Assembly (NCBI GenBank): GCA_013214705.1
Contig: JABSRZ010000004.1
Coordinates: forward strand, 248,001-312,000
Reading direction: 5' to 3'
From: Hyphomicrobiales bacterium
GTDB taxonomy: Bacteria > Pseudomonadota > Alphaproteobacteria > Rhizobiales > OSC116
Length of the DNA: 64,000 nt
Translations under genes and position numbers: made by a program
Shown here: in pieces, positions 1,941 to 61,143 of the stretch
Position numbering within the stretch: the first letter of the stretch is position 1
Layout: each line of letters starts with the position of its first letter
Notes under the pieces: generated by a model
Database searches by the model: none
Told to the model about the DNA's origin: nothing
The model's input: only the letters and a program-made list of their open reading frames with translations

Positions 1941-1949
1941 CTAACCGCC

Positions 1950-2455
1950 CGCCCCCAAGCACCCCGGTGATTCGGCGAGTGCGCCCAGAAGCCGAAAGGC
2001 ATAATTTGAGGCCAACGCGCGGAAGCTAGAAGACGCACACGCCAGTGTGTGGATTCGCACGCAAGTGCCAACAGTGACAAGGCCGACAGGCGGCAGGAAC
2101 GTATAAATGCAAGCACCCCTGTGATGGCAGGAGCGCTAACTGTCTATGTCTTTACAACATCAAATGCAGATTCAGCGTCTGAAACTCCAGCACAAAAAAT
2201 CAACAGCACAGCTTTTCAGCAATCTCTTGGGTGGCGCTCCTGTTGATGCTCTGGAAGTCTGCATTTATACGTTCGGCTTAAGCCTCACTGTTGGCACTTG
2301 CACCCCAAGGGCACTTTGTCGCTACGCTCGGGCGCGTGCGCTCGGCTCGGCCTCTCTAGCCCCCGCGCGTTAGACGGCAGCGGCTTCGAACGGCCGCTGT
2401 CGCGCTCACTGGCTGGCACGTTGTGTGGATGCGGGGGGGCAGACGGAAACTCAGC
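1950..2455. repeat. Large imperfect palindromic element, copy 1
   Basis: Shares GTGATTCGGCGAGTGCGCCCAGAAGCCGAAAGGC, GCAAGTGCCAACAGTGA and AACGTATAAATG with copies 2 and 3; reverse complements of several of these occur in the right arm (CATTTATACGTTCGGCTTAAGCCTCACTGTTGGCACTTGC). Confidence 0.85.
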
Positions 2456-2467
2456 ACAAACTGAATA

Positions 2468-22487: not shown

Positions 22488-22690
22488 TTAACTAATTTGG
22501 CTAATTTTGGGTTGAAAAAATTTGTCAAAAGCCTATGATTTAATAAGACAAACTTGCATTTGGCTTACTAAAGTTTGTTTTTGATATTCTAATTTGGCTG
22601 GTTTATTTGACATCTATCAATTGACAGTTTTTTTTAGGATGATACCTTGTAAGACTAAAGTATAAGATAAAAATATGGATAAGCGCCATA

Positions 22691-23086
22691 ATGAATTCAG
22701 ATAAACAATTAGCTGAATATTTAGGTACGTGTTTACGTGCAGTTAAATTGCGGGCTTTATCTGAAACAATATCGGCTGATTTCGTGTTTTCAAGCCCGCG
22801 TATTAAGGCTTATAATTTCGATCAATATTGCCAACATGTAGAAAGTTGGTCGGTTAGCATTGAAATAGAAATTATCAATATTGAACAAAAAGGCGATGTA
22901 TTTATAATTGATCAAATTATTCAAGCCGTTGACATTCCCAGAAATTATTTTGCAACCACGAAGAGGCGGGCTTTGATAACCATCACCAATCACATAGTGC
23001 AATCGATCCAAGTGGAATTTAGCGACCCAAATGAAATAGCATATATGAACATGGTCAACCCCATACCTGAAGACTTTAAACCATAA
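22691..23086 (+). CDS. Small conserved protein, tandem paralog 1 (possible NTF2-like fold)
   Basis: Intact 131-aa ORF with close homology to the next ORF. Confidence 0.7.
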   Translation: MNSDKQLAEYLGTCLRAVKLRALSETISADFVFSSPRIKAYNFDQYCQHVESWSVSIEIEIINIEQKGDVFIIDQIIQAVDIPRNYFATTKRRALITITNHIVQSIQVEFSDPNEIAYMNMVNPIPEDFKP

Positions 23087-23134
23087 TTTAATTTGAGTTT
23101 ATCGATACACATTTAACTACGGATATACAGCCTA

Positions 23135-23533
23135 ATGAATTCGGACAAAGAATTAGTTGAACATTTTACTTCGTGTTTAAGATCCAGTAAATTGCGTAAT
23201 TTATCTGAATCGATTTCACCTAATTTTGTGTTTTCAAGCCCGCGGGTTAATGCCTATAGTTTTGATCAGTTTTGTCAACATCTTGAAGACTGGTCAATTA
23301 ACATTGAAATAGAAATCATCAATATCGAGCAAGATGGAAATGTATATATAATTGATCAAGTTATCCAAACCGTCGACATCCCGCGAAATTATTTTGCCAC
23401 AGCAAAAAGAAAAATTTTTGTAACCGTTACTGATCATATAATACAATCGGTTAGAGTAGAATTTGACGCCGGACCAGAAGAAAAAGCCTATATGGACTCA
23501 GTCAACCCCATACTTGAGAAATTCAAGCCCTAA
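23135..23533 (+). CDS. Small conserved protein, tandem paralog 2 (possible NTF2-like fold)
   Basis: Intact 132-aa ORF, roughly two-thirds identical by eye to the preceding ORF (shared VFSSPR, IEIEIINIEQ, VDIPRNYFAT). Confidence 0.7.
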   Translation: MNSDKELVEHFTSCLRSSKLRNLSESISPNFVFSSPRVNAYSFDQFCQHLEDWSINIEIEIINIEQDGNVYIIDQVIQTVDIPRNYFATAKRKIFVTVTDHIIQSVRVEFDAGPEEKAYMDSVNPILEKFKP

Positions 23534-24034: not shown

Positions 24035-25510
24035 ATGGCGACAACACTTAATAGTGAGAATATTGACGGCTTTAGAGCTTCATTTGGTAAGTTTTTCTTC
24101 CCATTCTTATGGCTAAACTTCTTGGTTATATCGGCCATGATGTTTATAAACGGCGTTTATATGGCAGAATGGTTTACCGCCATCGGTTTTGTATCAACAG
24201 CGCTGCCAACCTATCTTTGGTCCAAAGATAAATCTTCGGCTTTGGTGCGCAATATGACATCGGCTTCGATGGCTCTATTGGTGGTTATGCTGATAAATGC
24301 CTATTCTGGCACGCCTTACCAAATTGACATACATATGTATATTTTCGCCAGCCTCGCGCTGATGGCAGGTTGGATTGATTGGCGCTCTAGTATTGTTTAT
24401 GTAGCGGTTATAGCCGTGCATCATTTGGTTTTAAACTTTTTATTCCCGCTGGCTGTGTTTCCTGAAGGCGCTAATTTCTTACGAGTTATATTTCACGCGA
24501 CGGTATTAATTGTTCAAGCCGCATTTCTGGTTTGGTTTATCCAACGTCTAACAAAATCCATCGCTGAAGCGAGTGACGCCGTTATCCACGCTGGTGAGGC
24601 ACAGAAAAGCGCCGAAATTCTATCGCTAGAAAGAGAACAGAGCGGCCTAGCCTCGACAAAACGCCAGGACCAAGTTGATGAGCTGATTAAAGCATTCCAA
24701 TCTAACATAGGATCGTCTTTAGACAGCGCGACAGAAAATAGCGCCAAAATGAAGCAAATTGCAGCTGACCTTACTGACATGTCAACCAATGCCAACGATC
24801 AAGTGACCATCGCTTCTGGCGCCTCAGAAGAAGCCTCTCAAAACGTCAACACTGTGGCGGTTGCTGCCGAAGAATTATCCTCATCTATTAGTGAGATTAC
24901 CCGCCAAGTTGAGCAAACGGCCAACATTGTGCAAACGGCGAGTGAAAAAGCTGCCCAAACTAATGAGCAAGTGATTAGTTTGAGCCAAAAAAGCCAAACC
25001 ATTGGCGCGGTTGTTTCGCTCATCCAAGACATTGCAGAACAAACAAATTTGCTGGCGCTAAACGCCACCATCGAAGCGGCGCGTGCCGGCGAAATGGGCA
25101 AAGGCTTTGCTGTTGTGGCATCTGAGGTTAAAAACCTTGCCAACCAAACCGCCAAAGCCACCGAGGAAATTTCGGCCCAAGTTACCGACATTCAGGCATC
25201 GACCAAAGATGCAGTCGAGGGCATTCAAGAAATTACCCAAATTATGGCCAAAGTGAACGAATATACAACGACCATTGGCTCATCTGTGGCGCAACAAAAC
25301 GATGCGACCATTGAGATATCTGAAAATGTGGCACAAGCCTCCAGTGGCACCCAAAGTGTGGCCAGCAATATGAGCAATATAGCCGAAACAATGGGCCAAA
25401 CCAATTCATCTGCCGCGGATGCTGCCCAAGCCTCAGAACGCATGGGCACTCAAATTGAGAGCCTAAAAACTGAAATTAATGACTTCCTCAAAAGTGTGGC
25501 AGCCGCTTAA
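24035..25510 (+). CDS. Methyl-accepting chemotaxis protein, membrane-anchored
   Basis: Several N-terminal TM segments; signalling hairpin [37 protein letters not shown]. Confidence 0.95.
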
Positions 25511-34531: not shown

Positions 34532-34651
34532 TTTTTGTTTGCACTGCGTGCGTTCGCTCCGCTCTCTAGCTACGCCTAACGGCGGCCTCAGTCGGCAAGT
34601 TCGCCAATAAATTGGCTCGCCTCTTTTTCCCACGATATTCGGCAACTTTGT

Positions 34652-35127
34652 GCAGAGTTTCGTCTGCCACCAAGAATCCCAGTGATTCGACGAGTGCGCC
34701 CAGAAGCCGAAAGGCAAACTATGTGGGCAACGCGCGGAGGCTAGAAGACGCACACGCCAGTGTGTGGCTGCGCACGCAAGTGCTAACAGTGAAAGAGGCG
34801 AAGCCGAGAGAACGTATGAATGCAGACTTCCAGAGCCTCGGCAGGAGCGCTAACTTTCTTTGTCTTAACGGCTTCAACTGCTGGTTCAGCGGCTGAAACT
34901 CCTGCGCAAAATCTCCACATCAGAACTCTCAGCAATCTCAGGGTGGCGCTCCTGCCGATACAGGGGTGCTTGCATTTATACGTTCGGCTTAAGCCTCACT
35001 GTTGGCACTTGCGTGCGCTCGACTGCGTCTCGCTAGCCTCCGCGCGTTGGCCACATAGTCTGCCTTTCGGCTTCTGGGCGCACTCGCCGAATCACCGGGA
35101 TTCTTGGAGGTGGCGGAAGTTCTGAAT
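34652..35127. repeat. Large imperfect palindromic element, copy 2 (best-preserved arms)
   Basis: Left arm (CAAGAATCCCAGTGATTCGACGAGTGCGCCCAGAAGCCGAAAGGCAAACTATGTGGGCAACGCGCGGAGGCTAG) closely matches the reverse complement of the right arm. Confidence 0.9.
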
Positions 35128-35145
35128 CTGCGGCTGCACCAAACA

Positions 35146-35177
35146 AAAAAGCCCCAACCTGACTACCAGACTGAGGC
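35146..35177 (-). terminator. Intrinsic terminator of ilvC
   Basis: On - strand GCCTCAGTCTGG-TAG-TCAGGTTGGGGC (12-bp stem with G-U pairs) followed by TTTTTT. Confidence 0.8.
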
Positions 35178-35205
35178 CTAATTTCCAACTTCAGAAACCT
35201 AATTC

Positions 35206-47243: not shown

Positions 47244-47271
47244 ACGCTAAAGCAAACTCATGCATTTCAAT

Positions 47272-47735
47272 ACACCTCCAAGAACCGCGGTGATTCGGCG
47301 AGTGCGCCCGGAAGCCGCAAGGCAATCTATGAGGCCAACGCGCGGAGGCTAGTGCGAATATTGAAAATATGAGCACGCACGCAAGTGCCAACAGTGAAAG
47401 AGGCGAAGCCGAAAGAACGTATAAATGGGAGTACCCGTAAAGTCGGCAGGACTGCTAAGTGTCTATGTCTTTACAGCTTCAACTGCAGGTTCATTAGCCG
47501 AAACCCCTGCGCAAATTTTCAACATCACAGCTTTTCTGTATATTCCGGGGCGGCGCTCCTGCAAGTGCTCTGGAAGTCTGCATTTATACGCTCGGCTTAA
47601 GCCTCTCTGTTGGCACTTGCGTGCGCTCGACTGTGTCTCTCTAGCCTCCGCGCGTTAGACGGCAGCGGCTTCGAACGCCTGCATTCGCACTCACCGAATC
47701 ACTGGGGTGCTTGGCGGCAGACGGAAATTCTGAGC
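47272..47735. repeat. Large imperfect palindromic element, copy 3
   Basis: Same arms and core as copies 1 and 2; right terminus GCAGACGGAAATTCTGAG abuts the folA stop codon. Confidence 0.88.
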
Positions 47736-49058: not shown

Positions 49059-49184
49059 TTTTGCCCCTAATGACATAAAGAATCGACGGTAAAACTAATT
49101 TTTTGTAGATTAATAACATCGCCTCTTTAAATTGTCACAATTATTTGCTATATTGGCTTTGTTAGACTTGTTCTGACTATGATG

Positions 49185-49462
49185 ATAAACTGCCTGTATA
49201 ATAAACCATTCGGACCCGGGGGCGGTACCCGGCGCCTCCACCAAAAACTCATTTTTGGGGGCGAAATAGGATCGACGAGGGCGTAAAAACTTGTTTTTCA
49301 TTCGGTATTGTACCACCGTTATCGGACTATTATTATAATTGCAAATGACAATTATGCAGAAGAAGTACGTTTAGCTGCTTAATGCACGCTCGACCTTTTT
49401 CGACCTAACTCCGACCCTTCAACCGGTCGGCGGGGCTTTGGGCACCTGGCAACAGAACGCCC
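49185..49462 (+). ncRNA. ssrA: Circularly permuted two-piece tmRNA; acceptor piece ends in CCA at 49243, coding piece begins at 49257 (outer boundaries approximate)
   Basis: GGGGGCGAAATAGGATCGACG (49257 on) pairs with CGCCTCC (49233-49239)-ACCA; T-arm CCGGG-GGCGGTA-CCCGG; tag ORF GCA AAT GAC AAT TAT GCA GAA GAA GTA CGT TTA GCT GCT TAA at 49341-49382. Confidence 0.93.
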
Positions 49463-49700
49463 TACCTTATTTTCAAAATATTATGCGGCATGAGCCAAAC
49501 AATATGCCGTTGCCAGAGGTTGTGCGAAAGCACAACGGCGTCGCGTAGCAGCCAAAACCAAGTGACAGAACGCCCTACCTTATTTTTGAAAAAACACACA
49601 CGGCATGAGCCAAGCAATATGCCGTTGCCAGAGGTTGTGCGAAAGCACAACGGCGTCGCGTAGCAGCCAAAACCAAGCAACAAAACGCCCTAACTAATTT
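49452..49700 (+). repeat. Tandem structured repeat downstream of tmRNA (two ~113-115 bp units plus partial third)
   Basis: ACAGAACGCCCTACCTTATTTT...CGGCATGAGCCAARCAATATGCCGTTGCCAGAGGTTGTGCGAAAGCACAACGGCGTCGCGTAGCAGCCAAAACCAAG repeated at 49452 and 49565; partial at 49680. Confidence 0.9.
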
Positions 49701-49825
49701 TCATATAATTTTTATACCGCATGTTTGCAGCATTGTCTGCCGCTCTCCCACGTGGTTAATTTTATTCATTCCATATTAATTACTCTTGGGATAAGCTGGG
49801 CACAATACAACCTAGGATTCTTGTT

Positions 49826-59982: not shown

Positions 59983-61143
59983 ATGGTTTTTGGCAGCAAA
60001 AAAAACGCAATATCTCAGGCCAATGCAGTTTGTACTGCCGTGGCAAACGGAGATTTCGAGCAACGTATATTAGGAATTAAAGGCACAGGTGAGTTAAGCC
60101 AATTATTTCATTCGATAAACCTACTTATCGACCGTACCGATGCTTATTTACGCGAATCAAAAGCCTGTTTGGACTATGTCGCGCGCAATCAGCATTTTCG
60201 CCTGATTTCCGAAAAAGGCATGATCGGTGATTTTAAACGCGCTGCACAAAGCATCAACAAAGCTACGGATAAATCAAAAATTCGGCACGAAAATTTCTGT
60301 GATATGGGCGAAGTTTTCAACCTAAAACTAGAAGATATTGTGAGCAATATTTCTGGCACCATTAGCTCACTAAAAACCGCATCAAATCAAGTCTCTTCAG
60401 CCTCTAACGATGCGCAAGAACAAGCCATGATTGCGGCATCTGGCGCCGAAGAAGCGTCAACAAACATTCAAAGTGTGGCGGTTGCCACCGAAGAATTGAC
60501 CTCATCAATCTCTGAAATTAACCGCCAAGTGCTTACCTCAGCGGACATCGCGCGTGATTCGGTGGCTAAATCTGCCGAAATTTCACAAGACATCCAAGAA
60601 CTATCAGTTGCTTCCCAACAAATTGGCGATGTTGTCTCACTGATTTCAGACATCACCGCCCAAACCAATCTACTGGCGCTCAACGCCACCATCGAGGCAG
60701 CAAGAGCTGGCAGTGCTGGCAAAGGCTTTGCGGTTGTGGCCGAAGAAGTCAAAAACCTTGCAGCACAAACCGCCGATGCAACGGTGAAAATTACCCAACA
60801 GATTAATTCACTGCAGTCATCCACTGGCCGCGCGGTAAAAGCCAATAAGGAAATTAGCGCCACCATTGATAAAATTAGCCAAACTTCGACCTCCATCGCA
60901 TCCGCGGTAGAAGAGCAAAGCACAGCCACCCAAGAAATTGCCCGCAATGTCGAAGAAGCTGCCGCTGGCACCACCGATGTGAGCCAAAGCATTGCCTCGG
61001 TAAACAAGGCCACACAAGCCACAGAAAAAACCGCCGCCGAAGTGTTACAAGTTTCAGACCTACTCGCCAAGCAAGAAACCAATTTAGATGGATTGCGCGA
61101 TGAGTTAAATGAATTCATAACCGAAGTGAAGCGCGTGGGCTAA
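59983..61143 (+). CDS. Methyl-accepting chemotaxis protein, no TM, HAMP-like N-terminus
   Basis: [78 protein letters not shown]. Confidence 0.92.

What the first reader, a model, noticed from the sequence alone, without database searches (positions are those of the whole stretch)
34652..35127. Family of ~450-510 bp palindromic elements confined to convergent 3'-3' intergenic gaps, all in one orientation
Each arm is about 190 bp and the core is about 90-100 bp. The left arm of copy 2 nearly reads as the reverse complement of its right arm, so a transcript could fold into a very long hairpin. All three copies (about 1.95, 34.65 and 47.27 kb) lie between a + gene on the left and a - gene on the right. 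No transposase is present. This could be a MITE-like non-autonomous element, a bidirectional terminator or insulator, or a selectively retained BIME/RPE-like repeat. No known family was recognised.
Basis: partly seen in the sequence, partly recalled or inferred. Interest (0 to 1): 0.85.

Follow-up and report, generated by a model that had tools for sequence, protein, structure and literature searches.

The report
Giant mosaic palindromes bracketing accessory genes
A family of roughly 500-base palindromic DNA repeats, found only in one little-studied genus of marine alphaproteobacteria, sits mostly where two genes end facing each other, is built from interchangeable hairpin modules, and often has an accessory gene (toxin-antitoxin, anti-phage defence, transporter) between its two arms where other copies have only a short spacer.

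Summary
The repeat is real and far from chance (fold z = -18.8; 85 arm units in the 3.5-Mb genome, control pattern 0). It is two ~195-nt 'units' facing each other around a ~90-bp conserved core. "Confined to convergent gaps" is too strong: elements sit in 28/78 convergent, 20/335 co-directional and 3/78 divergent gaps (p = 6e-11 and 4e-7), a bias repeated in related species. "All in one orientation" fails (10+/13- genome-wide). Compensatory change between the arms of one element is absent: arms match each other no better than arms of other elements (0.722 v 0.728). Each unit is a mosaic of fixed motifs and swappable small-hairpin cassettes; 0 of 34 elements carry the same central cassette class in both arms (expected 7.8), although elements share descent. 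'Single' units are mostly inward-facing pairs around one accessory gene or toxin-antitoxin pair (18 v 3). At one orthologous gap a species has nothing, another a hydrolase, two others an EamA transporter between arms. No TSD, RAYT, integron integrase, plasmid, phage or Rfam match. Best reading: a genus-restricted, recombination-shaped giant relative in kind of REP/BIME mosaics whose arms act as exchange points for accessory genes. Mobility is inferred, not shown.

The parts
34652..35128 (+). Copy 2, complete paired element (core orientation +), between a + GMC oxidoreductase gene and a - ilvC gene
34652..34853 (+). Copy 2, 5' arm (unit): outer cassette type A, slot-2 cassette AAGACGCACACGCCAGTGTGTGGCTG (long), slot-3 AAGAGGCGAAGCCGAGA, slot-4 CAGACTTCCAGAG
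34854..34937 (+). Copy 2, conserved non-palindromic core (loop); not coding: core lengths vary out of frame between copies and no Pfam match
34938..35128 (-). Copy 2, 3' arm (inverted unit): slot-2 CGAGACGCAGTCGAG (short), slot-3 GGCTTAAGCC, slot-4 CAAGCACCCC
34540..34640 (-). Related 'type C' arm next to copy 2 (contains GGCGAACTTGCCGACTGAGGCC on the - strand, 25 copies in the genome)
1943..2458 (+). Copy 1, paired element between a + DUF4395 gene and a - RraA-like gene; right outer arm of type B with an extra inserted module
47256..47733 (+). Copy 3, paired element ending at the stop codon of the - DHFR gene; the orthologous gap is occupied in G001 and G005 and empty in G003

Best explanation
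This is a genus-restricted family of giant, modular, palindromic interspersed repeats. The basic piece is a ~195-nt unit, with an outer terminus near GCAAACTCAGAATTTCCGTCTGCC and an inner terminus GGCAGGAGCGCTAAC, made of fixed motifs separated by slots that hold interchangeable small-hairpin cassettes. Two units face inward around either a ~90-bp conserved core ('empty' element) or one accessory gene or gene pair ('loaded' element). Shown: anatomy, copy number, genus restriction, bias to gene 3' ends, free combination of cassettes, differing cassettes in the two arms, inward-facing units around genes, and different cargo at one orthologous site. Inferred: the units are copied, inverted and exchanged mainly by homologous recombination or gene conversion between dispersed copies, so the arms work as portable homology at which accessory genes are gained, lost or swapped. 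Gaps between convergent genes are where this does least harm, so copies survive there. Different hairpins in the two arms keep the palindrome imperfect, plausibly so that it survives SbcCD-type cleavage and replication. Any effect on RNA 3' ends would be secondary.
For: 85 exact or near-exact units in G000 (39+, 46-) with 0 for the reversed control pattern; 23 pairs and 33 singles in 571 kb. Cassettes recombine across slots: 17-22 combinations seen, Cramer's V 0.27-0.34, not significant. Distinct slot-2 cassettes are hairpins (median 1.5% of shuffles as stable), slot-3 weakly so (9.5%), slot-4 not. 62 of 63 G000 units share one variant (CGCGCGG-A-..CTAG) where other species carry TC, CA, CC and so on, although copy 3 occupies an orthologous gap in G001 and G005. 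Arms of an element are no more alike than arms of different elements; 0 of 34 elements have the same slot-2 class in both arms, expected 7.8, p < 5e-5, and G000 contig ends hold no full elements, so assembly breaks do not explain this there. Convergent bias in two sets. Consecutive single units are inward-facing 18 times v 3 outward (p = 0.0015), 12 v 0 in other species, around one gene or TA pair each: Thoeris ThsB/ThsA, YefM-YoeB twice, FitAB-like, Tle1-like, DUF6119, glyoxalase, MAPEG, EamA, LysE. One convergent gap: bare in G003, arm-hydrolase-arm in G000, arm-EamA-arm in G005 and G001. AAA_33 gene between arms in G005, spacer in G001, with arm cassettes swapped left to right, as an inversion would leave.
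Against: No movement event with a clean junction was seen; between species at ~75-92% identity the junctions are blurred. Concerted evolution is clear only for G000; in the other species within-genome similarity barely exceeds between-genome similarity. The elements are related by descent, so the permutation p-values overstate independence, and in the other species contigs do break at elements, so homodimeric arms could be missed there. The long stretch C23:1-732 kb is almost free of this subfamily, which recombination alone does not explain. A core conserved across species suggests some function beyond homology.
Confidence: 0.5

Rival explanations
1. A non-autonomous transposon (MITE, with gene-carrying forms like mobile insertion cassettes or TIMEs) whose ~195-bp arms are terminal inverted repeats cut and joined in trans by an unidentified transposase.
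For: Defined outer termini (CTCAGAATTTCCGTCTGCC) conserved across copies and species, paired inward-facing arms with a filler or a passenger gene, empty v occupied sites between species, high copy number in one genus.
Against: No target duplication longer than 2 bp beside the termini of 9 two-ended elements; no candidate transposase inside any element inspected; arms are 195 nt and modular rather than a short binding site; no Y1 transposase in five of six genomes. DDE transposases were not searched genome-wide.
Confidence: 0.25
2. An RNA-level 3'-end device: transcripts from both convergent genes fold into the hairpin, which blocks exonucleases or ends antisense read-through, and selection keeps copies there for that.
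For: Extreme fold, strong bias to convergent gaps, intrinsic terminators found at 2 of 56 gene ends facing elements v 17 of 100 without (the searched stretch was shorter for the former).
Against: Arms do not co-vary within elements; no T-run at the element ends; ilvC has its own terminator-like hairpin between its stop and copy 2, also seen in G001 (sequence); single units lie in sense and antisense about equally; many copies are in co-directional gaps.
Confidence: 0.15
3. A sedentary integron-like array in which the units serve as attC-like sites for single-gene cassettes.
For: Single-gene and TA cargo, arrays such as L107 with four inserts in a row, hairpin-rich boundary repeats.
Against: No integron integrase above the TIGR02249 cut-off in six genomes (best 78.6 v 265 bits, Xer-like); units face inward rather than all one way; cargo is dispersed.
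Confidence: 0.05

Closest known systems
REP/BIME repeats and REP dimers, including CGTC-tagged REPs of alphaproteobacteria (PMC3733652)
   Same: Palindromic, intergenic, at gene 3' ends with convergent and co-directional sites preferred; singles and inverted dimers; heterodimers often preferred; CGTC families lack a dedicated transposase; mosaic.
   Different: Known REPs are 20-40 bp with 8-9 bp stems in the CGTC class; here a unit is ~195 nt with several cassette slots, and loaded forms carry genes.
REPINs with RAYTs (PMC3116915)
   Same: Two inverted repeats plus a spacer form a long hairpin and appear to be the replicating entity.
   Different: No Y1/RAYT gene in G000; spacing and unit length far larger; REPIN spacers show compensatory changes, these arms do not.
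TIMEs and mobile insertion cassettes (PMC4133298, PMC3913671)
   Same: Transposase-less inverted-repeat elements that come empty or with passenger genes.
   Different: TIMEs have 38-bp Tn3-type repeats, 5-bp duplications, low copy number; here arms are 195 nt, no duplication seen, tens of copies.
Chromosomal integron gene cassettes
   Same: Single-gene and toxin-antitoxin cargo bounded by hairpin-forming repeats.
   Different: No integron integrase; inward-facing bounding units; dispersed sites.
Minimal mobile elements (Neisseria concept, from memory)
   Same: Different genes exchanged at the same chromosomal gap by homologous recombination.
   Different: There the homology is the flanking genes; here a dispersed repeat arm provides it.

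Membership tests
REP / BIME | short (20-40 bp) palindromic unit | tested here: not met
   units ~195 nt
REP / BIME | intergenic, preferring gene 3' ends and convergent gaps | tested here: met
REP / BIME | units as inverted pairs and singles, mosaic combinations | tested here: met
CGTC-tagged REP | CGTC tag next to an 8-9 bp stem with 4-5 nt loop | tested here: inconclusive
   the outer terminus TTTCCGTCTGCC holds CGTC but no such stem directly follows; not tested systematically
REPIN-RAYT | Y1 (RAYT) transposase in the genome, flanked by the repeats | tested here: not met
   PF01797 absent from G000 and four of five relatives
MITE | terminal inverted repeats | tested here: met
MITE | target-site duplication | tested here: not met
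   9 elements with both termini, adjacent repeat at most 2 bp; old insertions could have lost it
MITE | cognate autonomous transposon sharing the ends | not tested
   no transposase found in cargo inspected; one resolvase in L116; whole-genome transposase survey not done
Integron cassette array | integron integrase IntI | tested here: not met
Intrinsic terminator | hairpin followed by a U-run at its 3' side | tested here: not met
   element ends read ...GCAGACGGAAATTCTGAG
Structured RNA of Rfam | match to a curated family | tested here: not met
   only tmRNA in the window; weak sub-threshold hits elsewhere

The most novel reading that the evidence does not exclude
The arms are the working ends of a transposase-less cassette-exchange system: a dispersed, self-homogenising repeat that gives a whole genus portable homology for swapping single accessory genes (defence, toxin-antitoxin, transporters) at fixed 'safe' gaps between convergent genes, with an enforced mismatch of arm hairpins that keeps such long palindromes viable.
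Probability: 0.25. Interest if true: 0.8.

Novelty: new variant of a known kind. Interest (0 to 1): 0.6.

Why it matters
Giant palindromes should be unstable in bacteria, yet these persist by the dozen per genome. The rule that the two arms never carry the same central hairpin class offers a concrete explanation, and echoes an unexplained preference for heterodimers noted for ordinary REPs (PMC3733652). If the loaded forms are exchange cassettes, this is a route for turnover of defence and toxin-antitoxin genes that needs no dedicated recombinase, and one that annotation pipelines do not see.

Tried and rejected
(1) RNA covariation between arms: rejected by within- v between-element comparison. 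(2) REPIN/RAYT: no Y1 transposase. (3) Integron: no IntI above cut-off. (4) Rfam family: none. (5) Plasmid, phage or viral origin: no match. (6) Coding core (ORF 34820-35125 with a signal-peptide-like start): no Pfam match and core lengths vary out of frame. (7) TSDs and empty sites: termini align but no duplication; species too diverged for base-exact junctions; near-identical pair G001/G005 gave cargo gain/loss and an apparent inversion but no clean whole-element insertion. (8) Fixed arm polarity (5' arm long cassettes, 3' arm short) holds in G000 but is reversed in two other species, so it is not a family rule. (9) Terminator counts were biased by stretch length and are not relied on. (11) A first genome contigs pattern was too specific to G000 and found nothing.

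Full report
What is there. The element at 34652-35127 is real. Its outer arms (92 nt) are 88% complementary, and the single strand folds at -310.8 kcal/mol against -180.8 +/- 6.9 for shuffles. Two other copies lie at about 1943-2458 and 47256-47733. The genome (3.52 Mb, 45 contigs) holds many more: a 16-base unit motif occurs 85 times (39 +, 46 -), with none for the reversed control pattern. In 571 kb taken around matches there are 23 inverted pairs and 33 single units.

Who has it. All five other genomes of the genus have it; none of 55 genomes from other genera of the order does. A pattern covering all species of the genus, run over 85,488 species genomes, found 71 stretches, all in MAGs called Hyphomicrobiales, OCS116 cluster or Alphaproteobacteria (one labelled Rhizobiaceae), several of them NORP isolates. 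Viral, phage and plasmid collections have no match.

Anatomy. A unit runs from an outer terminus (about GCAAACTCAGAATTTCCGTCTGCC) to an inner one (GGCAGGAGCGCTAAC). Between fixed motifs (CGCGCGG..CTAG, CGCACGCAAGTGYYAACAG, GAACGTATAAATG) lie slots with exchangeable cassettes; slot-2 cassettes are clear hairpins, slot-3 weaker, slot-4 not. Cassettes in different slots combine freely. The outer part has at least types A, B and C; a type C arm lies beside copy 2, and an apparent fourth type was seen in the otherwise empty C23 region. Paired units enclose a core of about 90 bp, conserved across species and not coding.

Gaps holding elements: 28 of 78 convergent, 20 of 335 co-directional, 3 of 78 divergent in G000; 30 of 66, 28 of 263 and 3 of 61 in other species (Fisher p 6e-11 and 4e-7, 1e-9 and 1e-7). 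So the preference is strong and the confinement false. Core orientation is mixed (10+, 13-). Arms of one element are no more alike (0.722) than arms from different elements (0.728, p = 0.67; 34 elements in all: 0.730 v 0.733). The hairpin is therefore not maintained pair by pair; it follows from two inverted copies of one unit.

A rule of unlike arms. In 34 paired elements no two arms share the slot-2 cassette class (expected 7.8; p < 5e-5; G000 alone p = 0.04, other species p = 0.0005). The caveats are shared descent, classes that I drew after seeing the cassettes, and assembly. For G000 no full element was found at 58 contig ends, so the rule there is not made by broken contigs; in other species contigs do end at elements. 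Ordinary REP families also favour heterodimers, without an agreed reason; SbcCD cleavage has been discussed (PMC3733652).

Cargo. Consecutive single units within 4.5 kb face inward 18 times and outward 3 times (p = 0.0015), 12 to 0 in the other species; one orthologous pair (L089, L107) is counted twice. The inserts are 0.3-2.1 kb, usually one gene or one TA pair: Thoeris ThsB + ThsA, YefM-YoeB in two loci, PIN + FitA-like, Gp49-like + antidote, DUF6119, Tle1-like, glyoxalase, MAPEG, DUF1203, DUF805, EamA, LysE + methyltransferase, AAA_33, a resolvase; several have no Pfam match. Both bounding arms keep their outer ends in most cases.

Turnover at fixed sites. In the convergent gap whose right-hand gene reads as parB (named from sequence, not tested), G003 has about 95 bp, G000 a type C arm plus arm-hydrolase-arm, G005 and G001 arm-EamA-arm (the hydrolase is named from its sequence, not from a family search). 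At another site G005 has an AAA_33 gene between arms, G001 a spacer; the slot-2 cassettes of the two arms are exchanged between left and right, as an inversion through the arms would give. Array L107 (G005) and its counterpart L089 (G001) differ in the central insert, and YefM-YoeB is present only in L107. Copy 3's gap holds an element in G001 and G005 and none in G003. Copy 2's gap holds only type C material in G001 and G005.

Mechanism. Shown: modularity, exchange of cassettes, different content at orthologous gaps, inward-facing arms around accessory genes, a species-wide sequence variant in G000 (62 of 63 units). Inferred: recombination and gene conversion between copies as the main process, retention where insertions are harmless, and avoidance of perfect palindromes. 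Not shown: any act of movement. A transposase acting in trans remains possible, although there is no target duplication and no Y1 transposase. An RNA 3'-end role is not excluded but has little support. The integron reading fails on the integrase.

Verdict. A real, genus-restricted, unusually large and modular relative in kind of REP/BIME repeats. It is not filed as a member of REP, REPIN, MITE or integron families, because a defining feature of each was tested and not met.

Noticed in passing
G000:C23:1-732000 (outside the window); L188 5910-6330: About 730 kb without this subfamily's unit motif, although 85 units occur elsewhere; a convergent gap there holds a tandem of another arm type with the same scaffold.
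   Followed up: partly
L098 1961-3577: Thoeris-type ThsB (TIR-like) and ThsA (macro domain) pair enclosed by inward-facing units.
   Followed up: partly
L107 1140-4638 and L089: Array of four inserts bounded by units (+ + - - -), with two toxin-antitoxin pairs; the orthologous array in G001 differs in the central insert and lacks YefM-YoeB.
   Followed up: partly
L130 4840-5800 v L086 2690-3150: Arm cassettes swapped left to right between two species, as an inversion across the arms would leave.
   Followed up: partly
window 49122-49466: Permuted alphaproteobacterial tmRNA; just downstream a 101-nt direct repeat in two copies (49486-49586, 49601-49701, 94%).
   Followed up: no
window 22671-23533: Two tandem paralogous genes (131 and 132 aa, 75% identical DNA over 300 nt).
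   Followed up: no
window 24994-25171 and 60615-60792: A 178-nt direct repeat pair, 72% identical, inside predicted genes.
   Followed up: no
window 35139-35180: Terminator-like hairpin with T-run behind ilvC, between its stop and copy 2; a diverged but still pairing version is in G001.
   Followed up: partly
L149 about 1169-1675: G001 carries a MerR-like regulator gene absent from the matching G005 gap (L090); it is not bounded by units.
   Followed up: no
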